Shown here one piece after another: positions 10,396 through 25,400 of a stretch of DNA of 64,000 nucleotides. The stretch is from an uncultured Eubacteriales bacterium (lineage in GTDB: Bacteria > Bacillota > Clostridia > Lachnospirales > Lachnospiraceae). The number at the start of each line of letters is the position of its first letter. The first letter of the stretch is position 1. Location of the stretch: positions 62,001-126,000 of the forward strand of contig CASFID010000025.1 of assembly GCA_949294665.1 (NCBI GenBank). The letters run 5' to 3'. A model generated the notes under the pieces. It was given only the letters and a program-made list of their open reading frames with translations, had not been told where the DNA came from and ran no database searches. The position numbers and the translations under genes are program-made.

Positions 10396-10554
10396 GAACG
10401 GGCTTTCCGGGAGAGGATCAGAAGTTCTGCAGAGAGACAAAGCGGGATACAGGGATCAGACGGAATAAGATTTTTGGAGCTGCAGCACGATGCACGACTG
10501 CCGCCGACTATAGGGCGCGGGCCTGCAGGGCAGCGCAGAGTACGGCCGCGGAGC

Positions 10555-10583
10555 TTGACATTCGCAGGTTCCTGTGCTAACCT
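10555..10583 (+). promoter_or_regulatory. Promoter of the metG leader
   Basis: TTGACA (10555-10560), a 17-base spacer and TAACCT (10578-10583). Transcription would start near 10590 and give a leader of about 480 bases before metG. Confidence 0.6.
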
Positions 10584-10589
10584 TTTTAA

Positions 10590-10918
10590 CAGACCTGAAG
10601 AATTTGAAATATCGGAAAAAGCAATGACGAAGAGAGTAATCTGTCGGAGATTCTACAGAGAAGTTCCGTAAGGACTGCAAAGCTTTTCAGAAGCGGCAGC
10701 CGGCGCTGAGAGGAACGGATGGAAGGCAGATGAAGATGGCTTCTGAGCAGCGCACCGACCTGTACATGTGTGCAGCAGGCTGCGATGGGTCCGCCCTTTA
10801 CAGCGGAGGAGTGCTGACTGGCACTCGCTGAGGTCCTTTCCGTGAGGGGAGGACGAAGAGAAGTGGTAACACGGAATGATTCCCGTCTTCTTAAAGGATA
10901 AGAAGGCGGGATTTTTTT
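10590..10918 (+). ncRNA. T-box leader, probably Met-tRNA responsive
   Basis: The 3' part shows the T-box switch. A terminator stem (10882-10892 with 10900-10910) is followed by seven T residues. An alternative antiterminator forms from GAAGAG (10854-10859) with CTTCTT and from ACGG (10871-10874) with CCGT, leaving a bulge that carries TGGT (10864-10867). TGGT would pair with a tRNA 3' end whose discriminator base is A, as expected for tRNA-Met. Upstream, GAAGAGAGTA and AGAGAAGTTCC/GGAAC resemble Stem I elements. ATG triplets at 10730-10732 and 10736-10738 are candidate specifier codons, but I cannot fix the Stem I fold by eye. The T-box sequence deviates from the usual consensus. The position upstream of metG fits. 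Confidence 0.72.
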
Positions 10919-10964
10919 CGCTGAAATTCTTGGCGGATCAAGCTTTTTCCCAATAATTGTAGTT

Positions 10965-11047
10965 CAAAAAGGGACAGGGCAAACTGCATTTAGGGACACA
11001 GTAAACTTCAATTGGGGACGTAGTGAAATTGAAGTTGACTACGTCCC
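10965..11047 (+). repeat. Dispersed 22-bp-unit/palindrome repeat, copy 1
   Basis: Units beginning GGGACA at 10971 and 10993 and GGGACG at 11015 follow a 22-bp period. The last unit runs into an inverted repeat with arms GGGACGTAGT (11015-11024) and ACTACGTCCC (11038-11047). It lies between the T-box terminator and the metG ribosome binding site, so it is transcribed as metG leader. It matches the copies at 12994 and 21437. Confidence 0.85.
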
Positions 11048-11070
11048 GGAACGAGAAAGAGGAGGTAAAT

Positions 11071-12975
11071 ATGTCAGAAAAACCGAAGTATTATATTTCA
11101 ACAGCGATCGCCTATACATCAGGCAAGCCGCATATCGGGAATACTTATGAGATTGTGCTGGCGGATGCCATCGCACGCTATAAGAGGAGCCAGGGCTATG
11201 ATGTCTATTTCCAGACGGGAACAGACGAGCATGGCCAGAAGATAGAGCTGAAAGCGGAAGAGGCGGGCGTTACGCCGAAGGAGTTTGTGGATAATGTTTC
11301 CAAGGAGATCAAAAGAATATGGGATATGATGGATACGTCTTATGACAAGTTCATCCGTACAACTGATCCGGATCATGAGAAGCAGGTTCAGAAAATTTTC
11401 AAGAAGCTCTATGAGCAGGGGGACATTTATAAAGGATATTATGAGGGAATGTACTGTACGCCTTGTGAGTCCTTCTTTACGGAGTCACAGCTTGTGGACG
11501 GCAAGTGTCCGGACTGCGGACGCGAGGTTCAGCCTGCGAGAGAAGAGGCATATTTCTTTAAAATGAGTAAATATGCGGACCGTCTGATCGAGCACATCAA
11601 TACGCATCCTGAGTTTATTCAGCCGGTTTCCCGTAAGAATGAGATGATGAACAATTTCCTCCTTCCGGGGCTTCAGGACCTGTGCGTATCCAGAACATCC
11701 TTTAAATGGGGAATTCCGGTGGACTTTGACGATAAGCATGTTGTATATGTATGGCTTGACGCACTCACCAACTACATCACCGGAATTGGCTATGACTGCG
11801 ATGGAAACAGTTCAGAGAAGTTTGAAAAATACTGGCCGGCTGATCTGCACCTGATCGGAAAGGACATTATCCGTTTCCATACGATTTACTGGCCGATCTT
11901 CCTCATGGCGCTGGGACTTCCGCTGCCGAAGCAGGTATTCGGACATCCGTGGCTGCTGCAGGGTGACGGAAAGATGAGTAAATCAAAGGGAAATGTACTC
12001 TACGCTGACGAGCTGGTCGATTTCTTCGGAGTGGATGCAGTGCGCTATTTTGTACTTCATGAGATGCCGTTTGAAAACGACGGAGTCATTTCCTGGGAAT
12101 TGATGGTAGAGAGGCTGAATTCTGATCTGGCTAATACATTGGGCAACCTTGTAAACCGTACTGTTTCCATGACAAATAAATATTTTGGAGGAACAGTTAC
12201 CGACAAAGGTGCGGCAGAAGAAGTGGATGCAGATCTGAAGGCGGTTATGGAGAATACTCCGAAAGCAGTAGATGAAAAGATGGACGGCCTGCGGGTGGCA
12301 GATGCCATTACAGAAATCTTTAATCTGTTCAAACGCTGCAATAAGTATATTGATGAGACGATGCCTTGGGCTCTGGCTAAGGTCGAGGCGAAGAAAGACC
12401 GTCTGGAGACTGTCCTCTGGAATCTGATCCAGGGAATCTCCGCCGGTGCAAGACTTCTGGAATCCTTTATGCCGTCTACGAGTAAAAAGATCCTGGATCA
12501 GCTGGGAGACGGACATGTGACAGATAAGCCGGAAATCCTGTTCCAGAGACTTGATGTGGAAGAAGTGCTGAAAAAAGTGGAAGAACTTCATCCGGCAGAA
12601 GAAGAGAAAAAAGAGGAAGAGGAAAATGTGATCGACATTGAGGCAAAACCGGAGATCACATACGATCAGTTCAGCGCGATGCAGTTCCAGGTGGGCGAGA
12701 TCATTGCCTGCGAGGAAGTGAAAAAATCGCGGAAGCTGCTCTGTTCTCAGGTGAAGATTGGCAGCCAGGTGAAGCAGATCGTATCCGGAATAAAAGCTTA
12801 CTATACACCGGAAGAGATGGTTGGCAAGAAAGTTATGGTGCTTGTAAATCTGAAGCCGGCCAAGCTTGCCGGAGTTGTATCCGAAGGTATGCTTCTCTGC
12901 GCGGAAGACGCCGATGGAAATCTCGCGCTCGTCACACCGGAGAAAGACATGCCGGCAGGAGCGGAAATCTGTTAA
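11071..12975 (+). CDS. metG: Methionine--tRNA ligase
   Basis: A 634-residue class I aminoacyl-tRNA synthetase that charges tRNA-Met. The nucleotide-binding signature appears as GKPHIGN (HIGH-like, about residue 17), and KMSKSKGNV (about residue 300) is intact. A four-cysteine zinc knuckle (CTPC and CPDC, about residues 130-150) marks the bacterial MetG1 type. An acidic Glu/Lys linker leads to a C-terminal EMAPII/Trbp111-like tRNA-binding domain of about 105 residues, as in dimeric MetG. I use the ATG at 11071, preceded by AGGAGGT, rather than an upstream in-frame start inside repeat copy 1. Expression is probably controlled by the upstream T-box. Confidence 0.96.
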   Translation: MSEKPKYYISTAIAYTSGKPHIGNTYEIVLADAIARYKRSQGYDVYFQTGTDEHGQKIELKAEEAGVTPKEFVDNVSKEIKRIWDMMDTSYDKFIRTTDPDHEKQVQKIFKKLYEQGDIYKGYYEGMYCTPCESFFTESQLVDGKCPDCGREVQPAREEAYFFKMSKYADRLIEHINTHPEFIQPVSRKNEMMNNFLLPGLQDLCVSRTSFKWGIPVDFDDKHVVYVWLDALTNYITGIGYDCDGNSSEKFEKYWPADLHLIGKDIIRFHTIYWPIFLMALGLPLPKQVFGHPWLLQGDGKMSKSKGNVLYADELVDFFGVDAVRYFVLHEMPFENDGVISWELMVERLNSDLANTLGNLVNRTVSMTNKYFGGTVTDKGAAEEVDADLKAVMENTPKAVDEKMDGLRVADAITEIFNLFKRCNKYIDETMPWALAKVEAKKDRLETVLWNLIQGISAGARLLESFMPSTSKKILDQLGDGHVTDKPEILFQRLDVEEVLKKVEELHPAEEEKKEEEENVIDIEAKPEITYDQFSAMQFQVGEIIACEEVKKSRKLLCSQVKIGSQVKQIVSGIKAYYTPEEMVGKKVMVLVNLKPAKLAGVVSEGMLLCAEDADGNLALVTPEKDMPAGAEIC

Positions 12976-12993
12976 AAACTGCGGAAAAACGCT

Positions 12994-13104
12994 CAAAAAG
13001 GGACAGGGAAAACTGCATTTTGGGACACGGTGAAACGCAATTAGGGACACAGTGAACTGCAATTGGGGACGTAGTGAAATTCAATTTCACTACGTCCCCA
13101 ATTG
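12994..13104. repeat. Dispersed 22-bp-unit/palindrome repeat, copy 2
   Basis: Three 22-bp units start at 13000, 13022 and 13044 and a fourth begins at 13066. The 3' end is a perfect palindrome: 35 bp at 13065-13099, extending to 45 bp at 13060-13104 with a single central base. The palindrome overlaps the 3' end of the glycerate kinase gene and supplies its TAG stop. It sits between two convergent genes. Confidence 0.9.
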
Positions 13105-14232
13105 ACGTCCTGCGCGCAGCATCCGGAACATTCTCCTCGCGGCATCGAGATACAGTTCTTCCGCCCGATCCATCGCTTCCTTCAGGGGCATGATCCCGTT
13201 TATCGTAGTTATAATGGAGTCGATTCCGTATTCATACAGTTGCTCTGCGCCCGGTCCCATGCTTCCGACAACCGCTGTAACAGGAATCCCGAACTTCCGA
13301 CAGTGCATCCCGACGCCCTGCATGACCTTGCCGGAGACGGACTGCCAGTCTGCCGCGCCCTCGCCTGTTACCACAAGGGAAACGCCTTCCAGTCTGCGGT
13401 CAAAATCAGAGAGTTCCAGGACAGTTTCGATTCCGGACTTAAGCTTTCCGTTTAAAAATGCCATAAGAGCAGCCCCCAGCCCTCCGGCAGCGCCGGCGCC
13501 GGGAATGGTATCCATATCGATGCCGAACTGGCGGAGCAGGACATCTCGGTAATTGCACATGCCTGCTTCCAGTTCATCCAGTATTTCAGGAGTTCCGCCT
13601 TTCTGCTTTCCGAAGGTATATGTGGCTCCGTTGGGGCCGCACAGCGGATTTGTGACATCACACATGACCGTAAAAGCACATTCTTTTAATTTCGGATCCA
13701 TGCCGGTGAGATCGATGGAACGGATCCGGATGAGATCTTTTCCGCGGCCTTCCAGTTCACTGCCGGACTCATCCAGGAAACGCACTCCCAGCGCACGCAT
13801 ACAGCCTATTCCGCCGTCGTTCGTGGCCGAGCCGCCGATTGCGATGGAAATGTCGCGGAAACCTTTTGAGACTGCGTCCGCGATCATCTCGCCGGTTCCG
13901 AGGGTTGTGGTCTCCCTTGGGTTACGTTTTCCCTCGGGAACAAGAGGCAGTCCCGATGCTGCAGCCATTTCCATGACAGCGCGTGTCTTGTACAGCTGCA
14001 CATATGAAGCAGGAATCCTTTCCATGAGCGGACCGGACACTGTCATATAGATTTTCCTTCCGTCTGTGGCAGAGAGTACCGCATCCGCAGTCCCCTCGCC
14101 TCCGTCAGCAATCTCAATGCTGTCGCATATGCATCCGGGGAAGATCTCTCCGGTAGCCTGTGTGAGCAGTTCTGCCGTACGGCGTGACGTCAGAGTACCC
14201 TTGAAGGAATCAGATGCAAATAAAAATTTCAT
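13090..14232 (-). CDS. Glycerate kinase (type II, GarK/GlxK family)
   Basis: A 380-residue kinase that phosphorylates D-glycerate, feeding it into glycolysis. Family signatures are the N-terminal FASDSFKGTL block (about residue 4), IADGGEGTADA, the GGSATNDGG glycine-rich motif (about residue 130) and GAGAAGGLGAAL. I start it at 14232 so that the product begins MKFLFASDSFKG like its relatives, with GAGGTG nine bases upstream. The last residues (about QLGT and the stop) are encoded by repeat copy 2, so the native C-terminus was probably replaced when the repeat inserted. It is a single gene, convergent with metG. Confidence 0.92.
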   Translation of the reverse strand: MKFLFASDSFKGTLTSRRTAELLTQATGEIFPGCICDSIEIADGGEGTADAVLSATDGRKIYMTVSGPLMERIPASYVQLYKTRAVMEMAAASGLPLVPEGKRNPRETTTLGTGEMIADAVSKGFRDISIAIGGSATNDGGIGCMRALGVRFLDESGSELEGRGKDLIRIRSIDLTGMDPKLKECAFTVMCDVTNPLCGPNGATYTFGKQKGGTPEILDELEAGMCNYRDVLLRQFGIDMDTIPGAGAAGGLGAALMAFLNGKLKSGIETVLELSDFDRRLEGVSLVVTGEGAADWQSVSGKVMQGVGMHCRKFGIPVTAVVGSMGPGAEQLYEYGIDSIITTINGIMPLKEAMDRAEELYLDAARRMFRMLRAGRQLGT

Positions 14233-14497
14233 ACAGCCATTCACCTCAGCAAAATAAATTTCATAACTGTCTCAATCTTATCAGTATTTCCCAGGCGGGT
14301 CAATCGCGCAGCAAAAGCGGAGAGAATTCGGTATACATATCCGACATGCAGCCTCATGGGAAAGAAAGTGTGTTATGATAAAGGCAAAGATCTAAACAGA
14401 ACTGCAGCGGACTCTCCATGGTTCTGTCTGCGAGAAAGACAAAAGTCTATGCGGGACAGAAAAATGAGTGAGCTGAAGAAAGGAAAGGAGGATCTGT

Positions 14498-15097
14498 ATG
14501 GAACTGAACAGCAGGATCGCGGAGATGGAACTGGAGAAGGCGGGCAAGACGAATCCCGGCCCATGGACAGACCACTGCCGGTATGCGGCGATGGCATGCA
14601 GAAATATTGCCGCGCACTGCGAGGGAATGTCTGCCGATGAGGCCTATATCCTCGGTCTGCTCCATGACATCGGCCGCTATGAGGGCGTCTATGCGGCAAA
14701 GCATCTGATCAAAGGATACCGCTACTGCATGGAGCGGGGATGGGAGAAGCCGGCACAGATCTGTATTACACATGAATTCATGATACAGGATATCAGAAAA
14801 GCGGGAGGACCGATGGACGTGAGCGAGGAAGACTATCGGTTCATAGAAGAGTTTCTCCAGAATGTCCGCTACGATGATTATGACCGTCTTGTGCAGCTCT
14901 GCGACGCCCTTGCGTTTCCTACCGGCTTCTGTATTCTGGAGAAACGGTTCGTGGATGTGGCACTGCGGTATGGGATTTATCCTGCTACGTTGGAACGGTG
15001 GAAAAAGGTACTGGAGATAAAAGAGATGTTTGAGAAAAAGACGGGCTGTTCCATCTATGATCTCCTCCCGGGTGTGGTGGAGAACAGTCTGCGGTGA
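14498..15097 (+). CDS. HD-domain phosphohydrolase
   Basis: A 199-residue soluble protein of the HD superfamily. The first metal ligand is the histidine in WTDHCRYAA (about residue 24), and the HD pair sits in LLHDIGRYEG (about residue 53) with a further THEF histidine near residue 90, which is enough for a divalent-metal phosphohydrolase. The substrate, probably a nucleotide or small phosphate ester, is unknown. The start has AAGGAGG upstream. The gene is monocistronic and followed by a strong hairpin. Confidence 0.8.
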   Translation: MELNSRIAEMELEKAGKTNPGPWTDHCRYAAMACRNIAAHCEGMSADEAYILGLLHDIGRYEGVYAAKHLIKGYRYCMERGWEKPAQICITHEFMIQDIRKAGGPMDVSEEDYRFIEEFLQNVRYDDYDRLVQLCDALAFPTGFCILEKRFVDVALRYGIYPATLERWKKVLEIKEMFEKKTGCSIYDLLPGVVENSLR

Positions 15098-15162
15098 AAT
15101 ATGCCGCTGAACAGAAAACTGCACAGAAAATCAGTCCACTTATCAGTCAGTTTAGCAGAAAT

Positions 15163-15205
15163 CAGACGGAGCCGTATCATTGGATGCGGCTCCGTCTGTA
15201 TTTTC
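15163..15205 (+). terminator. Hairpin after the HD-domain gene
   Basis: A perfect 12-bp stem (15163-15174 with 15187-15198) has a 12-base loop and is followed by TATTTTC. The stop codon of the convergent MATE gene lies in the loop, so the hairpin serves both genes. Confidence 0.55.
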
Positions 15206-16529
15206 GGATATAGTATACAATAAAAGCAAGCGCGCTGACGGTCCAGGTCACCGGATAGCTGTAAATGATCGCCGGGATCGTTGGTGAGACCCGCATCACT
15301 ACAGAAAGCCAGATGATGCGGAATACGCAGACACCCGTGAGCGTGATGACCATCGGTACAAGCACATCCCCGGTGCCCCGCAGCGCCCCGGCGAGCACCT
15401 CGATGATGACATAGACGATGTACCAAGGGATGATGAGGATGAGCATATTGCAGCCGATCCGGATCACATCTGGGTCTGTAGTAAACATCCGGAAAAGGAT
15501 CTCTCTTGCCGCGATCAGGAACAGAACAAGAATGCCCGATACTGCCAGGTCGATCAGGAGGCAGACCCGGGTGCTCCTGCGGACTCTGTCCATCCTGCCG
15601 GCGCCGTAATTCTGCCCCACAAATGTGGTGATGGCGATTCCGAAAGCGGTGCTGACCATCCAGAAAATGGCATCCAGTTTCCCATAGGCGGACCATGCGG
15701 CAGTGGTGTCGGTGCCGAAGGTATTGATCGCTGCCATGATCGCGATATTGGTGATGGAGAACAGGACGGATTCCAGACCGGTAGGGATCCCCATCTTCAG
15801 CTGTGTTTTCAGCACGGCTCCGTGGAAACGGATATCACGGAGGGAGAGATGAAGGAGATCCCTCGATCTCATCAGATCCCGCGTGACAAGGACCGCGCTC
15901 ACCGCCTGTGCGATAAGTGTTGCGACTGCCGCGCCCATGACTCCCATGTGGAAAACGATAACGAACAGGCAGTCAAGCACGATGTTGATGACACAGCAGA
16001 TGATCAGATAGTACAGCGGCCGTCTGGAATCGCCTGTGGCCCGCAGGATGGCAGAGCCCATATTGTAGACAAGGACGAACAGGATCCCCGCAAAATAAAT
16101 CCTCAGGTAGATGATAGAATCTGCCATGGTGTCAGCAGGCGTCCGCATGAGTGAGAGCAGGGCGGGAGTACACAGGATGCCGGCGACGGTGAGGAGGACC
16201 CCTCCTGCTGCGGCGAGTGCATATGCGTTGTGCAGACCCTGGTTTGCCGCCTTCTCATTACGCGCGCCGAAGAACTGTGCAATCGTGACTGATGCGCCGG
16301 AGGAAAGGCCGGTGAAAAACCCGACTACAAGAGCGACGATCTGCGCAGAGGAACCGCCCACGCTGGCGAGTGCTTCCTTTCCCACGAACTGCCCTACGAT
16401 CACGCTGTCTATTGTGTTGTAGAGCTGCTGGAAAAATGTGCCCAGCAGAATCGGGAAAAAGAAGAGCAGAAGCTGCTTCCAGATCGTCCCTTCGGTGATC
16501 GCATTTTTCGTCATAGCTGGTGATTTCAT
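15177..16529 (-). CDS. MATE family efflux transporter
   Basis: A 450-residue multidrug and toxin extrusion family protein with about 12 transmembrane helices in two similar halves (for example FFFPILLGTFFQQLYNTID near the start, and a repeat of that pattern after residue 240). MATE proteins export cationic drugs or metabolites using Na+ or H+ gradients; the substrate is not predictable. The start at 16529 has AAGGAAG eight bases upstream on the minus strand. Its own promoter lies at 16568-16596. The stop codon lies inside a hairpin shared with the convergent HD-domain gene. Confidence 0.93.
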   Translation of the reverse strand: MKSPAMTKNAITEGTIWKQLLLFFFPILLGTFFQQLYNTIDSVIVGQFVGKEALASVGGSSAQIVALVVGFFTGLSSGASVTIAQFFGARNEKAANQGLHNAYALAAAGGVLLTVAGILCTPALLSLMRTPADTMADSIIYLRIYFAGILFVLVYNMGSAILRATGDSRRPLYYLIICCVINIVLDCLFVIVFHMGVMGAAVATLIAQAVSAVLVTRDLMRSRDLLHLSLRDIRFHGAVLKTQLKMGIPTGLESVLFSITNIAIMAAINTFGTDTTAAWSAYGKLDAIFWMVSTAFGIAITTFVGQNYGAGRMDRVRRSTRVCLLIDLAVSGILVLFLIAAREILFRMFTTDPDVIRIGCNMLILIIPWYIVYVIIEVLAGALRGTGDVLVPMVITLTGVCVFRIIWLSVVMRVSPTIPAIIYSYPVTWTVSALAFIVYYIRKYRRSRIQ

Positions 16530-16567
16530 AAGTAAAACTTCCTTCTATCGTATATTTGCCGAATCAT

Positions 16568-16596
16568 ATTATATAGAAGCGGCGCAGGAGAAGCAA
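16568..16596 (-). promoter_or_regulatory. Promoter of the MATE gene
   Basis: On the minus strand, TTGCTT (16596-16591), a 17-base spacer and a perfect TATAAT (16573-16568). Confidence 0.65.
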
Positions 16597-16617
16597 TAGG
16601 AATACATCAGATAATAA

Positions 16618-16659
16618 ATCAGCGCGCCTTCATCTATCCAGAAATGAAAGCACGCTGAT
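16618..16659 (-). terminator. Hairpin after treC
   Basis: A 10-bp stem (16659-16650 with 16627-16618, one mismatch or wobble) follows the treC stop by about 30 bases on the minus strand. The downstream tract is TTTATTAT, so it is a modest terminator. Confidence 0.45.
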
Positions 16660-16691
16660 CTTTAAAAGAAAGGTTTCCTGACTGTCATTGA

Positions 16692-18353
16692 TTATTTATA
16701 CCATACTGCAGCTTCATAAGGCCTTAAGTTCATCACACCGTGATCCGCGCTGACAGCATCTTTGTAGTTCCCGATCACGCGGTCATATCCGGATACATCT
16801 GGCGCGCCCTTCCAGGAATAATCTCTTCCATAGAAGTTTGCCACGACGATGAGTTCGTGTCCTTCATAGGTCCTCCGGTAGGCGAAGACGCAGGGATCCT
16901 TCACTGCGAGCGGCTCGATATCGCCGTACGGGATAACGTCCAGCTCTTTTCTCATGGCGATCAGCTTCTGATAATAGTGGAAGATAGAATCCTCGTCCTT
17001 GAGCTGATCGGCAGCGTTGATCTTTGTGTGATTGCTGTTTACCGCAATCCACGGCTCAGCACTGTCCTCAGCAGAGAAACCGGCATATTTGGAATCATCC
17101 CACTGCATCGGCGTACGGCCGTTGTCGCGGGAGTGGATCTGTATGATGCGCAGTGCGTCTGAAGCGGACAGCCCTTTGTCCTGAAGAATCTGATAGTGGT
17201 TCAGGCTCTCCACATCCCTGAACTGAGAAATATCCGTAAAATCGGTGTTGGTCATGCCGATCTCTTCGCCCTGGTATACATACGGGGTGCCGCGCAGGCA
17301 GTGGATGATCGTGCCAAGCATCTTGGCTGATTCCTTCCAGTACTTTCCTTCGTCACCGAAACGGGAAACGACGCGGGGCTGGTCATGGTTGCACCAGAAC
17401 ACTGCGTTCCATGCATTGTGCTCAGCCATCTTGGTCTGCCAGTCAAAGATGATGTCCTTAAGCTTCTGGAAATCTGCCGGTACCAGGACCCATTTCTCAT
17501 TGCCCATAAAGTCTACCTTCAGGTGATGGAAGCTGAATACCATGGAGAGCTCCCCTGTATCGCGTCCTGCATATTTGAAGCAGTTTTCCATGGTGGTGCT
17601 GGACATCTCGCCCACTGTGACGATCTCCGGGTCAGTGCCGAAGGTGGCGTCATGCATTTCCTTCAGATACTGATGGATCTTGGGACCGTCAGTGTAGTAT
17701 TTACGTCCATCGCCGGTCTCATCGTCTTCGTAGCATGCCTTGCTGATCAGATTGATCACGTCGAAACGGAATCCTCTGACTCCTTTCTTCATCCAGAATT
17801 TTAAGATCTTCTGAATCTCCTTACGGACATTTTCATTTTCCCAGTTCAAGTCCGCCTGTGTCACGTCGAAGAGGTGAAGATAATACTCGTCAAATTTTTC
17901 TACATATTCCCACGCATTTCCGCCAAACTTGCTCTCCCAGTTGGTCGGCGGGACGCCGTCGCCCTTTCCTTTGCGGAAGATGAAGAAGTCTTTATAGTAG
18001 GGATCTCCCTCCATTGCTTTTCGAAACCACTCGTGGCGGGTGGACACGTGGTTGAACACCATATCAAACATGAGGCCGATACCGCGTTTTTGACCATCAG
18101 CGATGAGTTCCTCCACGTCTTCCATAGTCCCGTAGCGGGGATCGATGTTGTAGTAGTCCTCCACATCGTATCCGTTGTCGTTCTGCGGGGATACAAAGAA
18201 CGGTGTGAGCCAGATGTAATCTACACCGAGCTCTTTGATGTAATCCAATTTTTCAATAACGCCGCGGAGGTCGCCGAGTCCGTCCTTGTTGGTGTCACAG
18301 AATGACTTCGGATAAATCTGGTATACGGTGCTCTTTCTGAAATCTTTATTCAT
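16692..18353 (-). CDS. treC: Alpha,alpha-phosphotrehalase (trehalose-6-phosphate hydrolase)
   Basis: A 553-residue GH13 enzyme that splits trehalose 6-phosphate into glucose and glucose 6-phosphate in the cytosol. GH13 regions are visible: DMVFNHVS, GFRFDVINL with the nucleophile aspartate, GEMSST with the acid/base glutamate, and FWCNHDQPR with the transition-state aspartate. The start at 18353 gives the family N-terminus (MNKDFRKSTVYQIYPKSF); the longer frame has no advantage. The assignment as TreC rather than oligo-1,6-glucosidase rests on its place directly behind a trehalose PTS permease and opposite a TreR-type regulator. It is probably cotranscribed with treB. Confidence 0.88.
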   Translation of the reverse strand: MNKDFRKSTVYQIYPKSFCDTNKDGLGDLRGVIEKLDYIKELGVDYIWLTPFFVSPQNDNGYDVEDYYNIDPRYGTMEDVEELIADGQKRGIGLMFDMVFNHVSTRHEWFRKAMEGDPYYKDFFIFRKGKGDGVPPTNWESKFGGNAWEYVEKFDEYYLHLFDVTQADLNWENENVRKEIQKILKFWMKKGVRGFRFDVINLISKACYEDDETGDGRKYYTDGPKIHQYLKEMHDATFGTDPEIVTVGEMSSTTMENCFKYAGRDTGELSMVFSFHHLKVDFMGNEKWVLVPADFQKLKDIIFDWQTKMAEHNAWNAVFWCNHDQPRVVSRFGDEGKYWKESAKMLGTIIHCLRGTPYVYQGEEIGMTNTDFTDISQFRDVESLNHYQILQDKGLSASDALRIIQIHSRDNGRTPMQWDDSKYAGFSAEDSAEPWIAVNSNHTKINAADQLKDEDSIFHYYQKLIAMRKELDVIPYGDIEPLAVKDPCVFAYRRTYEGHELIVVANFYGRDYSWKGAPDVSGYDRVIGNYKDAVSADHGVMNLRPYEAAVWYK

Positions 18354-18401
18354 AATCTCAATACCTGCCCTTTCCATTGAATTTATGTGGTGATACTGCC
18401 C

Positions 18402-18446
18402 GCGCCGCACCCCGGCTGTCCGATGAAGCTGTCCGATGTGCGGCGC
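18402..18446 (-). other. GC-rich hairpin between treB and treC
   Basis: A perfect 9-bp inverted repeat (18402-18410 with 18438-18446) lies in the 128-base gap between the treB stop and the treC start. There is no T tract, so it is more likely an mRNA processing or stability element, or a partial terminator that lowers treC relative to treB. Confidence 0.4.
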
Positions 18447-18481
18447 AGTTGCTGCTGTTTATGATTCCGGGAAGAGGCTGC

Positions 18482-20449
18482 TTAGTTCCAGGAGATGACG
18501 GTCGTCTCTCCTGCCTTTGCATCAATTCCCGAGTGCATTTTGATGTTTGCTGCATTTCCCTCTGAGGTGACGATCAGCATGGTCGTGCAGGGATGCCCCG
18601 CCGCCTTGATCTTCGCCGGATCGAACTCGATCAGCGGCTGTCCTGCCTTTACATGGTCTCCTTCTTTCACAAGGAGTTTGAAGCCGTCTCCGCCCATGTC
18701 TACGGTGTCGACACCTACATGGATCAGAAGTTCTACGCCGTTTGGAAGCGACAGCCCGCATGCGTGGCCTGTGTCCGCCATCACAACGCTTACGTCACAA
18801 TCCGCCGGTGCGGTCACTACATTGTTGGAAGGCTCGATCGCAAGCCCGTCTCCCATGATCTTCTGTGAGAAGACGTCGTCCGGAGCTTCCTCGATCGGCA
18901 TTACTTTACCGTCAAGGATGGATTTCAGTTCTTTTACATCTGCCGCTGCGCTTTCGGTTTTTGTCTCAACTGAAACTGCCTCAGCTTCAGGAGCCGCAGC
19001 CGGAGCCGCTGCTTCTTTTCCGTATCTGTCTTCTCTTGAAAGCTTGATCCTTCCTACAAGAAATGTCAGTGTGAACGGGATCACAATTGCGACGGCCATA
19101 GCAAGAAGGAAGATCAGGTAGTATTCCGGCTTGATGGAAAGGATTCCCGGGAGTCCGCCGACGCCGATGCTCAGAGCTTCCACTCCGAAGCCTACGGAGA
19201 TCATTGCCGCACAGCAGGAACCGATCATGCCGCATACCAGCGGGAATACATATTTTAAGTTGACACCGAAAAGTGCCGGTTCAGTTACGCCTAAGTAACA
19301 GGAGATGCATGCCGGTACGTTGACCTGCTGTGCACGCTCGTTCTTTTTCTGAAGAACACTCATAGCAAGTACGCTGGAACCCTGCGCGATATTGGACAGG
19401 GCGATCATCGGCCACAGGATCGTGCTCTTTGACGGAGAAGCAAGAAGCTGCGAATCGATGGCGTTCGTCATGTGGTGCAGACCGGTCATAACGAGCGGTG
19501 CATATAACAGACCGAATACTGCTGCAAACAGGAACCTGAAGTCAGATGTAAGTCCTGAGTATACTACGTCTCCGATCGCGTTGCCGATCTTCCAGCCGAT
19601 CGGTCCTACGATGGTGTGCGCGATAATAACCGCCGGGACCAGGGAACAGAACGGAACTACGATCATACTGATCACTTCCGGACATATCTTCTTGAAGAAT
19701 TTTTCCAGATAAACAAGGACGAAGCCTGCCATCATCGCCGCGATAACCTGTCCCTGATAACCGATCATCTGGACTTTAAAGAATCCGAAATCCCATACCG
19801 GAATTTCTGAAACCGGTGTATCGGCTACGCTGAAGCCGTTCAGCAGCTGTGAGGATACAAGAGTCAGACCGAGGACGATACCAAGGATCTGAGTCGTTCC
19901 CATTTTCTTAGTAATTGACCATACGATACCGACCGGCAGCAAGTGGAATACCGCTTCACCGATCAGCCAGAGGAAATTGTACATTCCGGACCAGAACTGA
20001 GAAATATCTGCAAGACTCTGTGTGTTGTTGTTGAAGAAGTTGATCTCACCGATCACGTTTCTGAAGCCGAGTACAAGACCACCGCAGATCAGAGCAGGGA
20101 TCAGGGGAGCGAAGATCTCGCCCAGTGTGCCCATGATCTTCTGGAGTGGATTCTGGTTTGTCTTGGCAGCCGCTTTCACGGCGTCTTTGCTCACGCCTTC
20201 AATCCCTGCGTAAGCGGTAAATTCATTGTAGAAAACGGAGACATCATTTCCGATGATGACCTGATACTGTCCGGCCTGAGTGAATGTGCCCTTTACGCTC
20301 GGCAGTTCCTCGATCGCCTTTTCATCTGCTTTTTTCGGATCGACAAGAACAAAGCGCATTCTTGTCATACAGTGGGAAACAGCCTGGATATTCTCTTTCC
20401 CGCCGACGAGATCCAACAGACGTTTTACATCATTTTCATACTTTCCCAT
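18482..20449 (-). CDS. treB: PTS trehalose transporter, fused EIIBCA
   Basis: A 655-residue phosphotransferase permease that takes up trehalose as trehalose 6-phosphate. The order is EIIB (residues 1-85, phospho-cysteine in AVSHCMTRMRF), EIIC with about ten membrane helices (about 105-460), an Ala/Glu-rich linker, then a glucose-type EIIA domain (about 510-655) with the histidine motif in LLIHVGVDTV. Bacillus TreB lacks EIIA, so the fused EIIA makes this protein self-sufficient after HPr. It is transcribed from a strong promoter with operators at 20502-20547, divergent from treR. Confidence 0.92.
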   Translation of the reverse strand: MGKYENDVKRLLDLVGGKENIQAVSHCMTRMRFVLVDPKKADEKAIEELPSVKGTFTQAGQYQVIIGNDVSVFYNEFTAYAGIEGVSKDAVKAAAKTNQNPLQKIMGTLGEIFAPLIPALICGGLVLGFRNVIGEINFFNNNTQSLADISQFWSGMYNFLWLIGEAVFHLLPVGIVWSITKKMGTTQILGIVLGLTLVSSQLLNGFSVADTPVSEIPVWDFGFFKVQMIGYQGQVIAAMMAGFVLVYLEKFFKKICPEVISMIVVPFCSLVPAVIIAHTIVGPIGWKIGNAIGDVVYSGLTSDFRFLFAAVFGLLYAPLVMTGLHHMTNAIDSQLLASPSKSTILWPMIALSNIAQGSSVLAMSVLQKKNERAQQVNVPACISCYLGVTEPALFGVNLKYVFPLVCGMIGSCCAAMISVGFGVEALSIGVGGLPGILSIKPEYYLIFLLAMAVAIVIPFTLTFLVGRIKLSREDRYGKEAAAPAAAPEAEAVSVETKTESAAADVKELKSILDGKVMPIEEAPDDVFSQKIMGDGLAIEPSNNVVTAPADCDVSVVMADTGHACGLSLPNGVELLIHVGVDTVDMGGDGFKLLVKEGDHVKAGQPLIEFDPAKIKAAGHPCTTMLIVTSEGNAANIKMHSGIDAKAGETTVISWN

Positions 20450-20501
20450 CGTTTCTCTTCCTTTCTTTTATTCAAGATTTCAAGCCCCTGCAAGCACCGA
20501 A

Positions 20502-20547
20502 CTTGTTTGAACAACTACACTATAACACCCTTGTTTAAACATGTCAA
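20502..20547 (-). promoter_or_regulatory. treBC promoter with two TreR-type operators
   Basis: On the minus strand a perfect TTGACA (20547-20542) and TATAGT (20524-20519) are 17 bases apart. A palindromic TTGTTTAAACA site (20531-20541) fills the spacer. A second, imperfect site (TTGTTTGAACAA, 20503-20514) covers the start point. Occupancy of either would block RNA polymerase, as expected for a GntR-type repressor. Confidence 0.8.
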
Positions 20548-20647
20548 CGAGATTTTTAACCCGAAATAATTTTCGTGATATCTGTACAAAACGTCTGTCT
20601 GCATTTTGTTCAAAACTTTCAGAATAGAGCTCGAAGCAAGATTCTGC

Positions 20648-20699
20648 TTGATTTTCAGTGCTTACGTTTTTATAATAAAAATAGATGTTTAAACAAGAC
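20648..20699 (+). promoter_or_regulatory. treR promoter with operator
   Basis: TTGATT (20648-20653) and TATAAT (20671-20676) are 17 bases apart. The start point near 20683 is followed at once by TGTTTAAACAAG (20686-20697), the inverted copy of the treB spacer site, so treR is probably autoregulated. The start point also argues against translation from the ATG at 20685. Confidence 0.75.
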
Positions 20700-20711
20700 G
20701 AGGATATAGGA

Positions 20712-21446
20712 ATGCCTAAAGCGAAGTATGACCATATTTATAAGGATTTAAAAGAAAAGATTGAGACAGAATATTATGCATATCAGGAGATGCTTCCGTC
20801 CGAGAACACGCTCGTGGGGATATACAGCTGTTCCCGCAATACCGTGAGGAGAGCGCTCGCAGAACTGACTGCGGACGGATATGTGCAGCCCATGCACGGC
20901 AAAGGAGTCAGAAATATTTTCCAGCCGGTGGAACAGACTGCTTTTACGGTCGGTGGGATTGAATCGTTTAAAGAATCAGCGGCGCGGAACAGGAAGAAGC
21001 CTTTCACCAGGGTGCTTCAGTTCGCGGAGATCACGGCTGATGAAAAGATAGAGCGGCGCACAGGATTCAAGAAAGGCACGGAACTGTATTATATCCAGAG
21101 ACTCCGTTCGCTGGACGGGAAACCGCTGATTCTGGATCATAATTATTTCCTGAAAGAACTCACGAGGGGGATCACGCCGGAGATTGCGGTCAATTCGATC
21201 TATGAATATCTGGAAAATGTGCGCGGCCTTACAATCTCGACAAGTAAGAGGACACTTACTGTGGAGCGCGTCACACAGGTAGATGAAAAATATATTGATC
21301 TGAAGGACTATAACTGTATGGCGGTCATCACCAGCCAGACCTTCAACGATAATGGAATCCAGTTTGAGTATACACAGTCAAGACATCGTCCGGATTACTT
21401 CATGTTCCAGGATGTCGCGACCAGAAATCACCGTTCGGGGACGTAG
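20712..21446 (+). CDS. treR: Trehalose operon repressor, GntR/UTRA family
   Basis: A 244-residue regulator with an N-terminal winged helix (residues 1-70, with PSENTLVGIYSCSRNTVRRAL) and a C-terminal UTRA ligand domain (about 85-235, ending HRPDYFMFQD). In relatives, trehalose 6-phosphate releases the protein from DNA. I start it at 20712, because GAGG lies at a proper distance and 20685 is within two bases of the predicted start point. The last three residues and the stop come from repeat copy 3 (GGGACGTAG reads Gly-Thr-stop). It is divergent from treBC and shares operator sequences with it. Confidence 0.92.
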   Translation: MPKAKYDHIYKDLKEKIETEYYAYQEMLPSENTLVGIYSCSRNTVRRALAELTADGYVQPMHGKGVRNIFQPVEQTAFTVGGIESFKESAARNRKKPFTRVLQFAEITADEKIERRTGFKKGTELYYIQRLRSLDGKPLILDHNYFLKELTRGITPEIAVNSIYEYLENVRGLTISTSKRTLTVERVTQVDEKYIDLKDYNCMAVITSQTFNDNGIQFEYTQSRHRPDYFMFQDVATRNHRSGT

Positions 21447-21520
21447 TGAAATTCAATTTCACTACGTCCCCGATTGCGGTTTGCTATGTCCCGAAATGCA
21501 GGCAGCCCCGTCCCTTTTTG
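21437..21520. repeat. Dispersed 22-bp-unit/palindrome repeat, copy 3
   Basis: In minus orientation, 22-bp GGGAC units end in the same perfect 35-bp palindrome (21437-21471). Both flanking convergent genes read into it: treR stops at 21446 and the glycosyltransferase stops at 21462, each using the GGGACGTAG arm. The glycosyltransferase thereby gains about 17 extra C-terminal residues. Confidence 0.9.
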
Positions 21521-22466
21521 ACTTACCCGACGACTTATCAGAACTCCAGACCCCGCCTCTCTGTTTTTCAATGTAGATAGGTCTCCGCTTGCTCTCCATA
21601 TAATCTCTTGAAATATACTGTCCCAGGATGGAGAGAAACAGCATCTGCATTCCGTTCAGCAGCAGGATCAGGCAGATCAGCATCACGGTCCCCGGAAGTC
21701 CGCGGCCGGACAATGCGAATCCCAGGGCGGTCAGTACAGCGAGGGCGATCAGCAGTGCGCCGATGATTCCGGGGAGCGCTGCGGGAGCGGAAGAGAAGGA
21801 GAGAATCCCGTCCAGTGCATAGCGGAACAGAGAGCGGAAGGTCCACTTGGTCTCTCCCGCCGCCCGGGCTTCATTGTGAAATGGAATCCATTTTGTATCA
21901 AAACCGACGAAAGAGAAAATCCCTTTCATATAGCGGTTGTATTCCTTCAACTCCAGTACAGAGTCCGCCATGGCGCGGTTCATCATTCGGAAATCTCCAG
22001 CGCCGTCACCCATTTCCAGACGGCACATCCGGCCAATGATTTTATAGAATGTGCGGGACAGCAGATTACGGAGGCGCCCCTCCCCGGTGCGGTCTTCGCG
22101 CAGTCCTGCGCAGCAGTCGTATCCTTCTGTGCTGACGACGCGGTACATCTCTTTCAAGAGTGTGGGAGGGTGCTGAAGGTCCGCATCCATGAAAACGCAG
22201 TAGTCACCGGAAGCATTTTCCAGACCGGCGTACATCGCCGCCTCTTTGCCGAAATTCCTTGAGAAAGAAATATATTTGCACCGGCAGTCCGACGCCGAAA
22301 AATGTTCCAGTATTTCCCGCGTATGGTCCCGGCTCCCATCGTCCACAAAAATAAATTCGCATTCCGCACCCACGATCTCATCCGCGGCGGCAGCAGTTTC
22401 GCGGTAAAATGCAGGCAGTACGTTCTCTTCGTTATAGCACGGTACAATAATACTGATCTTATCCAT
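21462..22466 (-). CDS. GT2 family glycosyltransferase (CsbB/GtrB/DPM1-like)
   Basis: A 334-residue membrane-bound polyprenyl-phosphate sugar transferase. The N-terminal GT-A domain (residues 1-225) has IIVPCYNEEN, the VDDGSRDHT aspartates and the MDADLQHPP metal motif. Two transmembrane helices (about 225-290) follow, as in CsbB and GtrB. The start at 22466 has AGGGGG upstream and overlaps the stop of the YfhO-GtrA gene by eight bases, so the two are translationally coupled. Enzymes of this type load a sugar onto undecaprenyl phosphate. The C-terminal tail after KSSGKSK is encoded by repeat copy 3 and is unlikely to be native. Confidence 0.9.
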   Translation of the reverse strand: MDKISIIVPCYNEENVLPAFYRETAAAADEIVGAECEFIFVDDGSRDHTREILEHFSASDCRCKYISFSRNFGKEAAMYAGLENASGDYCVFMDADLQHPPTLLKEMYRVVSTEGYDCCAGLREDRTGEGRLRNLLSRTFYKIIGRMCRLEMGDGAGDFRMMNRAMADSVLELKEYNRYMKGIFSFVGFDTKWIPFHNEARAAGETKWTFRSLFRYALDGILSFSSAPAALPGIIGALLIALAVLTALGFALSGRGLPGTVMLICLILLLNGMQMLFLSILGQYISRDYMESKRRPIYIEKQRGGVWSSDKSSGKSKRDGAACISGHSKPQSGT

Positions 22467-25400
22467 GAAAGTTTTCCCCCTTTTTAAAAACACCATATTT
22501 ACACAGAACATAGTTGCCGGCGACAGTCACTGCGCTGACAAGGATCTTGGATATGAAAGCGGGTGCAAGCAGCAGGTCAATGAGGAGCCAGAGCAGCAGG
22601 CTCTCTGCCAGAAGCGTTGCGGACCGAAGTGCCGCAAAGGCAGAAAATTCGCGCAGTATCCGGCCGCGGGAGCAGAACACGAGCCTGCGGTTAAGTATAT
22701 AGGCGGTCAGCACCGCGCCCGCCCATGCTGCGCTGTTGGCCGCAGGCCAGGGAAGGCGAAAAGACAAAAGCAGTGCATACAGGCAGTAATTAACGCCTGT
22801 TGTGATCACGCCGCTGATGAGATAGGCGGCCAGTTCCTTTTTCTTTTTCATAAGCCCCCTTTTCTGCAGCCTGAGTTTGGACACCACATTGCAGATGAGA
22901 AAAATTCCGTATCCGGCGGCAGAAACAAGACTTAAAAAGCAGCCGAACGCTTTCCCGGGAGGTGAAAAACGGATGTCCACAGAATGTGTTCCCTGTGCCA
23001 GGAGAACCCCGGCAAATGCTTCATTTACAGTGATCAGCTCTGACGATTCTCCGTCCACGAGAATTTTCAGGCCATGCTGGAGAGGAATAGAAGTTGCGAG
23101 CACTCCTTCTGTCTCTGCTGTGACCGAGCCCGAAAGGATACTGTTTCTGTCCGTGGCTTTGGCGAGCTGTACCGGAGTATAGTTCTTTTCTGTAAATCGT
23201 TCTGCGCTGTAGAGAGACCATTGGATATCGCTGATCACATAATGGCCTTTGGAAAATGTGATCTCCAGACTGTCCGTGCCCGTTCCCGGCGAAGATGTAA
23301 ACTGATAGTGAAAACACTGATTCTGGTTGGGGTACGGGGCAAGACATCCAGAGAGCTTGTTGCGGATCCCGTTTATGTCGATTACGACGGCGTCTCCGGT
23401 CCTTGAAGCGACAGAAAACTGCAGGAGCAGGATACAGTCCGGAACAGGATCGGAGATAGTTACGGTCAGCCGGCATTTCCGATCTGCCGTGATCTCGAAG
23501 CCTTCCGCAGATTTGCGGATCGTAAGTCCGTCCGGGAGCGGACCGGCGGACAGGGAAGGTGAAAAAGAAGGGATCCCGTAATCACTGGCTTCTTCCGCGG
23601 TTTTAAAATGGATTCCTTTATCCGGAATGCTTTTCAGATCTGCCACAGTGCTTCTGGTAACTGCATCCAGCTTTCCGTCCGGAGAGAGCTGTTCATAATC
23701 TTCCGATGAGATCAGATCATTGGTAAAATATGCAGCTGGGAGCACAGACCTGTTTTCTGCGATCACATTCTGCCCTGCCTGGTATACCGGCGTGTATCCG
23801 ACGGGAATGCTGTCCGCCGTCGTTTCCAGATAGCGCACGCCCAGGAGGTGCAGCAGGAACGGGTTATCCGAGGTCAGCAGCGCGGTCCGGTTGTTGATCC
23901 GGATGGGAGTCCGGAGTGTATCGTAATAGAAGCCGGAGTAGGCAGGATTCGTGACGGAGGAATACATAGTGTTCCTGGTAATCCCGGCGGCGGGAAGTTC
24001 ATTGCTGTCCTCCAGGGGACGGATCAGGCTGTCAAAACGGTACAGAGGATCAAAGGAAATATTTTTGGAGGCCTCTTCCAGCTCTTCCTGGGAAAATCCC
24101 GCTGTGGTTTCAGAGCGCTTCACCCAGTTTTCTGTTCCGGCGGTCGTGAGATACATGCCGGTCGGAGCTGTAAGGAGAAGCAGGATGGCGGCAGCGCCAG
24201 CGGCAGAGCGCAGCCGGCGGCTGCGGACGGTCATTTCCGGGGCTGAAGAATGAGGCAGGGCGTGCAGCAGGTGAGCAAGCAGGCCGGAGGGAAGCAGGCC
24301 GCGTTTCTCTGCACGCATCAGACACAGGCTCCGCAGGATGAGGCGGAGCGCCAGCAGGATTCCGAGCTCTGCCAGGATCCACGGAAACTGCGGCTGGCTG
24401 AACCAGAGCAGGCTTACCGGGATCATGACTGCGAAAGGCCATGCGGGAAAGCAGTTTTCCCTTTCTGCTTCCGGAGCTGCTGAGGATCCGGTCTGCGCGG
24501 GATACAGAGCAGGTTCTGCGGAAAGAAGTGTGCTCATACGGAGAAACTCGGTCTGCAGGAAGCGGACGCAGTGCAGGATGACCAGAGGCATGAAGGGAAT
24601 CAGAATCTTCGGCCGTGCGTAAAGCATTCCGTTCAAGATCCAGGAAAAAACTCCGAACAGTCCCATCATCAGGAAGAGCTGGCTGTCCCTGCGGAAAGGT
24701 TTTCTGGAAAGTCCCGCCAGCACCGCATAAAAGCAGATCAGTGTAAGTCCCATTCCATATTCGTTAAACAGGATATTGTTGAACACCGGATTCGGTCCGA
24801 ACAGTTCCAGAAGTTTCAGCAGTCCGGTGGATGTACTGCCCCGGCCGTGCTCCAGAAGCACAAGCGCGGTGGGAAGCAGGAGCGCCGCCGCCATTGCCGC
24901 GGCGAGGACTGCCGACGGGATATAGCGTTTTACAAAGGAACCTTTCCAGAACCGCCTGCCTTTTGCCCGGTACCAGTACCATCCGACCGCAGCGAAAGCA
25001 GAGATGGAAAAGTAAAAACTGGAGAGACAGATCATCAGGAGACAGAGAGGAAGCCATCTGTACTTTTCCCTTCTGACACACAGGAAAGCTGCCAGCAGAA
25101 ACGGCAGATAATTCACGAACATGATCTGCCGGTGCATATGGAAGAGACATCCCGCAGTCAGGAAGAGGATGCTTCCCAGCCACGCTCCGGCGGGAGAGAT
25201 TTGTTCCGTCCTGAGCCAGAGAAACATGAGGAGTACAGAACCCAGATATGCAGCCAGCATGTAACCGATAATGATATTTATCATAGGTATCTGCGGCAGC
25301 AGGCATCCGATCAGGATGTCCGGCCTTAAGAAACCGTAATAGGCGAACTGATACCCATTCGAGCCGCCGCCCAGACGGATCCATGAGGGCAGCAGGGTAT

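What the first reader, a model, noticed from the sequence alone, without database searches (positions are those of the whole stretch)
10965..21520. Dispersed repeat of 22-bp GGGAC units ending in a 35-bp perfect palindrome
Three copies (10965-11047, 12994-13104, 21437-21520) share units that begin GGGAC at a strict 22-bp period, two or three per copy, ending in a palindrome built on GGGGACGTAG. Two copies have the perfect 35-bp palindrome; copy 2 extends to 45 bp. Such elements recall REP/RAYT-type non-autonomous repeats, but the unit-plus-palindrome structure is not one I can name. Two copies sit between convergent genes and one in a leader.
Basis: partly seen in the sequence, partly recalled or inferred. 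Interest (0 to 1): 0.75.

Follow-up and report, generated by a model that had tools for sequence, protein, structure and literature searches.

The report
RAYT-linked repeats with 22-bp phased arrays
Gut bacteria related to Mediterraneibacter carry scattered copies of a small repeat, a ruler-like array of 22-base units ending in a palindrome, and the same array brackets a transposase-like gene that probably spread the repeats; the array layout is unusual for this kind of system.

Summary
In detail: three window copies, each 22-bp GGGAC units ending in a 33-bp palindrome. A Y1/HUH transposase (RAYT) between glyS and an M18 aminopeptidase gene has a palindrome on both sides in 49 of 50 locus records (some genomes counted twice). 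In 58 genomes of the genus, all 32 with this RAYT carry at least 5 exact palindromes (median 16.5); of 26 without, 21 carry 0-3 and 5 carry 11-27. In 299 family genomes, one per genus, three others have unit-plus-palindrome, and all three encode a 40-49% identical RAYT; the remaining genera were not tested for RAYT. Spacing is very strict: 232 of 241 GGGAC/GTCCC words lie at multiples of 22. It is not a canonical REP (GTAG lies in the stem); it best fits the little-studied TIRtron/TIRYT kind, with a new phased-array architecture. Recent transposition is not shown: most copies are diverged and several are orthologous between species. The window's contig appears misbinned.

The parts
10971..10992 (+). 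copy 1, distal unit (GGGACAGGG type)
10993..11014 (+). copy 1, unit next to the palindrome (GGGACACAG type)
11015..11047 (+). copy 1, 33-bp palindrome, imperfect; folded as single-stranded DNA its right arm pairs with the neighbouring unit instead
10615..10893 (+). context: T-box-like leader upstream of copy 1 (72.4 bits, E 9.4e-16, below the Rfam gathering score of 93)
   Evidence: no match at gathering threshold
11071..12975 (+). context: methionyl-tRNA synthetase gene; ATG begins 24 bases after the last base of the palindrome
13000..13065 (+). copy 2, three 22-bp units
13066..13098 (+). copy 2, palindrome core; perfect palindrome extends over 13060-13104 (45 bp)
13090..14244 (-). context: glycerate kinase gene whose last codons and stop (Q-L-G-T-stop) lie in the palindrome
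20685..21446 (+). context: GntR/UTRA regulator gene; its stop codon TAG is part of the GTAG of copy 3
21438..21470 (-). copy 3, palindrome core; perfect palindrome 21435-21473 (39 bp)
21471..21514 (-). copy 3, two 22-bp units (reverse orientation)
21462..22511 (-). context: glycosyltransferase family 2 gene, whose end (Q-S-G-T-stop) also lies in copy 3

Best explanation
The three copies are members of a dispersed, non-coding repeat family made of the end sequence of a RAYT element (REPtron/TIRtron kind). The autonomous form is [palindrome][inverted units]-RAYT-[units][palindrome], one gene with inverted ends. Dispersed copies are single ends ([units][palindrome]), close inverted end pairs of REPIN/MITE type (four seen, three of exactly 227 bp), and lone palindromes. 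Shown: the architecture, the strict 22-bp phasing, the association with this RAYT type and not with a second type, and presence/absence among species. Inferred: the HUH/Y1 RAYT cleaves the palindrome as a single-stranded hairpin and, mostly long ago, copied it to new intergenic sites, while the in-phase GGGAC units are extra protein-binding sites (22 bp is about two helical turns, iteron-like) that load or orient the RAYT on its ends. Lone palindromes at the glyS/M18 locus are most simply scars left when the sequence between two palindromes was lost.
For: One Y1_Tnp match in G000 bracketed by two inverted copies. 49 of 50 RAYT locus records have a palindrome on both sides (up to 5 substitutions allowed; the 50th is cut by a contig end); palindrome-to-gene distance rises with left unit number: 98-105 with 2, 120-125 with 3, 144 with 4. 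HUH (H60, H62) and Y119 are invariant in 20 of 20 homologs; the model's best PDB match is RAYT 4ER8, E=1.2e-5. 32 of 32 RAYT genomes have at least 5 exact palindromes against 5 of 26 without. Six genomes with only the second RAYT type (34-38% identical) have 0-2 palindromes. Three of three other genera with unit-plus-palindrome have the RAYT. 232 of 241 GGGAC/GTCCC words lie at multiples of 22; 123 of 126 palindromes are 33 bp. 227-bp inverted pairs at two different loci of G016. Lone palindromes stand in place of the RAYT in G035 and G078. By eye, the element upstream of metG is present in 17 of 29 readable loci, absent in 11, doubtful in 1. Two genes that end in the element end otherwise in relatives.
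Against: No recent insertion was caught: copies within one genome are mostly diverged (median identity G016 82%, G000 without C25 76%, G024 80%, G006 89%; pairs at 95% or more: 2 of 136, 0 of 28, 0 of 21, 1 of 15), several sit at orthologous positions, and no target site or duplication could be defined. Pairing inside the palindrome is not clearly maintained: of the variable pairs only the innermost exceeds all shuffles, so a hairpin substrate is not proven. Five genomes carry 11-27 palindromes without a detected RAYT, two of them 98-100% complete. The protein part that would read the units is unidentified: the C-terminal domain has no significant PDB or Pfam match. The sequence search of the PDB found no RAYT, and NCBIfam's RAYT model is below its cut-off for the three proteins tried. 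L049 has one unit but a distance of 106, against the distance rule. Genomes in the association test are related, so its Fisher value (2e-11) is not a true probability; and the other genera of the family were not searched for the RAYT.
Confidence: 0.78

Rival explanations
1. The arrays are host operators: a chromosomal DNA-binding protein (the RAYT itself, domesticated, or another factor) reads the phased units and palindrome to control neighbouring genes such as metG, and they are kept for that reason rather than spread as mobile DNA.
For: 22-bp phasing and conserved half-sites with little arm covariation look like protein sites; copy 1 lies between a T-box-like leader and the metG start, and an element is found there in 17 of 29 readable loci.
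Against: Each of 35 classifiable copies lies downstream of at least one gene (14 between genes on the + strand, 8 on the - strand, 13 convergent, 0 divergent; 11 of 46 not classifiable by a crude ORF caller); elements bracket the RAYT gene; presence at metG is patchy.
Confidence: 0.1
2. The elements work mainly as RNA: transcribed hairpins that end or protect mRNAs.
For: Strong folding of all three copies as single-stranded DNA (z -4.2 to -5.7); location close to gene ends.
Against: No T-run follows the palindromes in the window; variable arm positions hardly covary; the units of copy 2 add no folding (z 0.06); no Rfam match at gathering threshold in window 10000-22000.
Confidence: 0.05
3. Ends of a DDE transposon (classical MITE) that happen to lie next to a RAYT.
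For: Inverted pairs of fixed length resemble MITEs.
Against: Association with one RAYT type and not another; the RAYT carries the ends in every record that could be read on both sides. No DDE transposase was searched for.
Confidence: 0.03

Closest known systems
TIRtron / TIRYT (Di Nocera 2013, PMC3733652; probably RAYT subclass 2.1 of Quentin 2018, PMC6006769)
   Same: Y1/HUH gene flanked by long inverted repeats; the repeats also occur as single or paired copies elsewhere; GGG..A[CG] core; protein longer than most RAYTs, with a C-terminal extension; FQ and YIH[LM]NP motifs
   Different: Ends are ordered, strictly 22-bp phased direct units plus a 33-bp palindrome; strict GGGGWSAS fits only 19 of 230 units; T instead of N before the HUH motif in 19 of 20; no HTH profile matched; Di Nocera's main text does not contain the word Firmicutes; Quentin found no REP-like sequences for subclass 2.1
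REPtron with REPs/REPINs (E. coli, Pseudomonas, Stenotrophomonas)
   Same: RAYT, palindromic repeats flanking it and dispersed in intergenic DNA, inverted pairs
   Different: No unpaired GTAG foot (GTAG is inside the stem); 22-bp units beside the palindrome, for which I know no counterpart (recalled); 5-27 exact palindromes per RAYT genome rather than the hundreds known in some REP-rich species (recalled)
Plasmid replication iterons with an inverted-repeat operator (recalled, no call)
   Same: About 22-bp direct repeats in helical phase plus an inverted copy of the unit
   Different: No replicon or replication initiator was seen; a likeness of layout only

Membership tests
REP / REPtron | Cognate RAYT gene flanked by the repeats | tested here: met
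   49 of 50 locus records, some genomes twice
REP / REPtron | Unpaired GT[AG]G at the foot of the hairpin | tested here: not met
   GTAG is part of the stem: GGGACGTAG in 116 of 120 left arms, CTACGTCCC in 117 of 120 right arms (elements were selected for likeness to these words, up to 3 mismatches)
REP / REPtron | Multicopy, extragenic | tested here: met
   5-27 exact palindromes in each of 32 RAYT genomes (G000's 15 include the contig C25); 36 of 46 examined copies outside ORFs by a crude caller, 10 called inside
TIRtron / TIRYT (subclass 2.1) | HUH and Y motifs, FQ, Y[IV]HLNP-like, long protein | tested here: met
   HFH (HVH in one), FQ, YIH[ML]NP in 20 of 20, 253-255 aa; but T, not N, before the HUH motif in 19 of 20. 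Pfam Y1_Tnp above cut-off in 3 of 3 tried; NCBIfam REP_Tyr_transpos below its cut-off of 80 bits in 3 of 3, 65.6-73.5
TIRtron / TIRYT (subclass 2.1) | Flanking long inverted repeats that recur elsewhere as single or paired copies | tested here: met
TIRtron / TIRYT (subclass 2.1) | GGGGWSAS motif in the TIR | tested here: not met
   19 of 230 units fit strictly; 195 of 230 fit GGGACA[CG]. In the papers the motif holds for part of the TIRs, not all
TIRtron / TIRYT (subclass 2.1) | C-terminal helix-turn-helix (Bac_DnaA_C, HTH_23, HTH_28) | tested here: inconclusive
   All-helical model of the last 75 residues (pLDDT 89.7), but no PDB match better than E=3 and no HTH family in Pfam for 15 of 15 members
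REPIN | Two ends in inverted orientation moving as one unit | tested here: inconclusive
   Four close inverted pairs, three of exactly 227 bp, but most copies are single and movement as a unit was not seen
IS200/IS605 insertion sequence | Several near-identical copies of the transposase gene | tested here: not met
   one Y1_Tnp match in G000; 30 of 32 genomes have a single match of this RAYT type, G014 and G076 two
MITE of a DDE transposon | Target-site duplication | not testable with these tools
   no close enough empty-site pair was found

The most novel reading that the evidence does not exclude
A RAYT with two-part DNA recognition: its HUH core handles the palindrome as a hairpin while its uncharacterised C-terminal helical domain reads an ordered, helically phased array of 22-bp double-stranded sites, as an iteron-binding replication protein does. 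Single arrays left at gene ends and before metG would then be docking sites of a domesticated RAYT.
Probability: 0.3. Interest if true: 0.75.

Novelty: new variant of a known kind. Interest (0 to 1): 0.52.

Why it matters
Quentin 2018 (sections read) found no REP-like sequences beside the long-tailed RAYTs of subclass 2.1 and left it undecided whether their C-terminal domains read the flanking repeats. Here is a compact, genus-wide system with one RAYT type, one repeat family, natural variation in unit number, genomes without the RAYT, and a second RAYT type as specificity control. That makes the recognition question directly testable. It also adds a RAYT-linked repeat family in Lachnospiraceae gut bacteria. 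My paper searches listed nothing that, by title and start of abstract, describes it; one search listed only 10 of 138 papers, and subscription journals are mostly not held.

Tried and rejected
Canonical REP: rejected, GTAG is inside the stem. RNA structure: of the variable palindrome pairs only the innermost exceeds all 500 shuffles. Pairing of units with arms: alternative hairpin suggested by copy 1 is not general; unit next to the palindrome against right arm 7.24 of 13 matches, shuffled mean 7.12, maximum 7.37; the other four comparisons also stay within the maxima, though mostly 1-2.5 sd above the mean, and one of six sub-blocks (unit against left arm, positions 17-22) just exceeds its 500 shuffles, 3.17 against 3.16. 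Terminator: no T-run after the window palindromes. Clean empty site: the extra G006 copy (L141:8071) lies outside the part that aligns with the window; metG and glyS/M18 comparisons show presence/absence, but flanks are too diverged to define a target. C-terminal HTH: not confirmed. Concerted evolution: central palindrome letters differ by 3.10 of 15 within genomes, 3.73 between genomes at the same locus and 4.03 at different loci, a weak trend. Viral contigs: 0 exact matches. Dropped rows: 2 spurious hits (window 3879, L141:12509); loci with fewer than 110 bases before or 60 after the palindrome were skipped. The 126 and 120 element sets come from loci fetched around matches and include orthologs. 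The 50 RAYT records are 20 (L050, cut, left out) plus 30. Searches scored only some candidates per genome and their listings were cut, so absence there proves nothing by itself.
Full report
Observation. The three copies exist as described. Each is a series of 22-bp units beginning GGGAC, ending in a palindrome whose halves read as overlapping inverted units. The two-unit pattern occurs 5 times in the window and 0 times in 100 shuffles. Copies 2 and 3 are perfect palindromes of 45 and 39 bp; copy 1 is imperfect.

Genome-wide. The half-palindrome with up to 2 mismatches has 20 matches in the window's genome G000, often two per palindrome; the backward control pattern has none. Stretches around them show single ends, inverted pairs and lone palindromes. 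In all loci held at that point, 126 elements with distinct flanks: 123 palindromes are 33 bp long and 232 of 241 GGGAC/GTCCC words within 110 bp lie at exactly 22, 44, 66 or 88 bp, 9 elsewhere; random placement would give 4 of 105 offsets. 11 of the 126 have no unit and 6 have units on both sides. The set contains orthologs and is not independent. Units are ordered: the second unit from the palindrome reads GGGACAGGG in 65 of 92, the one next to the palindrome is more varied (29 of 120 GGGACAGGG, 26 GGGACACAG, 15 GGGACATAG).

The transposase. G000 has one Y1_Tnp match, a 255-aa protein between glyS and an M18 aminopeptidase gene, with one element on each side, palindromes outward and units inward. 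The search for related loci gave 21 relatives: 19 titled Mediterraneibacter or Lachnoclostridium, one Lachnospiraceae bacterium, one Faecalimonas. 20 of the 21 show palindromes on both sides and the 21st (L050) is cut on one side. Of 50 RAYT records, 49 have palindromes on both sides. Unit counts left/right are 2/2 in 28, 4/2 in 8, 3/2 in 5, 2/1 in 4, 0/0 in 2, and 1/1, 2/0 and 2/cut in one each; in L037, one of the 0/0 records, the unit words have mutated at the same places. HUH and tyrosine residues are invariant in 20 of 20. The AlphaFold model (pLDDT 77) best matches E. coli RAYT 4ER8 (E 1.2e-5), while a sequence search of the PDB finds no RAYT. The C-terminal 75 residues fold alone as helices (pLDDT 89.7) but match nothing significant.

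Association. In 58 genomes of the genus, 32 have this RAYT type (60% identity or more; G024's is a partial gene) and all 32 have at least 5 exact palindromes (median 16.5, range 5-27). The other 26 have 0-3 in 21 cases and 11-27 in five: G080, G019, G074, G005, G021. G019 and G005 are 85% and 75% complete; G021, G074 and G080 are 100%, 98% and 91% complete and stand as exceptions, which would fit repeats outliving their RAYT. G007, G063, G069, G071, G077 and G079 have only a second RAYT type (34-38%) and 0-2 palindromes; the flanks of that gene read in G007 lack GGGAC words within 250 bp. In 299 family genomes, one per genus, four carry an exact unit-plus-palindrome start: G000 and three others; all three others encode a RAYT of 40-49% identity, and the sequence printed beside it in two of them shows a GGGAC palindrome with a unit 22 bp on. 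The other 295 genera were not searched for the RAYT. Relatedness inflates the Fisher value.

Gain and loss. Of 18 glyS/M18 intervals fetched from genomes without this RAYT type, G035 and G078 have one palindrome and no RAYT, G077 a decayed one, and 15 show neither in the up to 330 bases printed (L214, L218, L219 and L221 may not reach the M18 start). A lone palindrome is what remains if the sequence between two palindromes is lost, since inverted palindromes are also direct repeats. Upstream of metG, within 330 bases and by eye, the element is present in 17 of 29 readable loci (of 30 fetched; the window's own included), absent in 11 and doubtful in 1 (L098). There, G066 and G004 lack the distal unit of G002, a difference of 21 bases. 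The window's GntR, glycerate kinase and glycosyltransferase genes end in ...GT-stop read from the element's GGGGACGTAG. Of 14 GntR homologs read, four (window, G016 and G006 among them: L111, L112, L115) or rather these three end so; L113 and L114 stop before their element, and nine others end otherwise with no element within 40 bases; for glycerate kinase one relative without the element (L085) ends otherwise. Four close inverted pairs were seen: three of exactly 227 bp (two at different loci of G016; one in G000 whose flank matches that of one of these by eye) and one of 196 bp (L023); the 73-bp spacers are at most weakly alike (37 of 73). One search's listing shows the same 194-bp palindrome distance in G061 and G062.

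Age. Copies within G016 have median identity 82%, 2 of 136 pairs reach 95%; in G006 1 of 15 (median 89%), in G000 without C25 0 of 28, in G024 0 of 21. The window copies and their G006 orthologs are 89, 89 and 93% identical over 55 bp, against about 86% for the surrounding DNA. Spread was therefore mostly old, and mobility today is unproven.

Mechanism. Outer palindrome positions are nearly invariant; among variable pairs only the innermost exceeds all shuffles, and unit-arm likeness is at most marginal. This favours sequence-specific protein recognition over pure hairpin selection, without excluding a hairpin: copies 2 and 3 fold into it strongly as single-stranded DNA, copy 1 prefers another pairing. 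Two helical turns per unit suggests side-by-side binding on double-stranded DNA; this is inference. That the RAYT cleaves and copies the ends is inference from IS200/IS605 and E. coli RAYT biochemistry (abstract, outline and section 29 of PMC8266576 seen; otherwise recalled).

Known kinds. Di Nocera 2013 (PMC3733652; part 1 of 8 of the text, section 16 and passages seen) described RAYTs flanked by long TIRs, some sharing GGGGWSAS, and named them TIRtrons; the words Firmicutes, Clostridium, Ruminococcus, Eubacterium and Lachnospiraceae have no occurrence in its main text (figures not held). Quentin 2018 (PMC6006769; outline, sections 10, 11, 12 and part 1 of 15 seen) puts 20 of 26 TIRYTs in subclass 2.1, reports no REP-like sequences there, and leaves open whether their C-terminal domains read the repeats. 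The present family fits that kind with a distinct end architecture. Bertels 2017 was not found under the DOI I recalled and was not seen.

Binning. The window's contig C25 is 99-100% identical to G016 over the stretches compared (in one search only 3448 of 6001 bases, where the G016 contig ends), while G000 also holds a second metG (81%, C44) and second copies of other window genes (72-81%, C73). C25 is thus most likely a contaminant from a G016-like organism, and the RAYT that belongs with the window copies is probably G016's (L143; its contig has the length of CAJFQZ010000040.1), not the 67% identical one on G000:C48.

Noticed in passing
window 1-64000 (G000:C25): The contig appears misbinned: 99-100% identical to genome G016 where compared, while G000 carries a second metG (C44, 81%) and second copies of other genes (C73).
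   Followed up: partly
window 13090, 21446, 21462: The palindrome's GGGGACGTAG supplies the C-terminal codons and TAG stop of three genes (glycerate kinase, GntR, glycosyltransferase); for the first two, relatives end differently.
   Followed up: partly
L144, L152, L153: A second RAYT type (34-41% identical) occurs in several genomes of the genus; no 22-bp arrays within 250 bp in these three, though L152 and L153 have a single GTCCC/GGGAC word.
   Followed up: partly
L092 and L097, downstream of metG: A related but different palindrome (GGGGAC[GC]AAGCAAGA...) in G071 and G079, which have only the second RAYT type.
   Followed up: no
L208-L211, downstream of glyS: Conserved GGGGGAATATTTCC...ATTCCCC-type hairpin where no RAYT is present.
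   Followed up: no
L029 4681-6635, L164 1247-3270, L167 1442-3356: Two elements with units facing each other across about 1.9 kb in G000, G016 and G024, possibly one orthologous arrangement around a gene.
   Followed up: no
G048 (L145, L146): A genome of the same order with 8 RAYT-like matches; two of the three read are flanked by GGGGACGGTTC...-type inverted repeats without 22-bp units.
   Followed up: no
L044 / G076: A 99% identical G016-type RAYT lies in bins that also hold another RAYT, so G016-like contamination may affect several bins.
   Followed up: no
window 21525: The long alignment with G006 ends at copy 3, so the repeat lies at a synteny breakpoint.
   Followed up: partly
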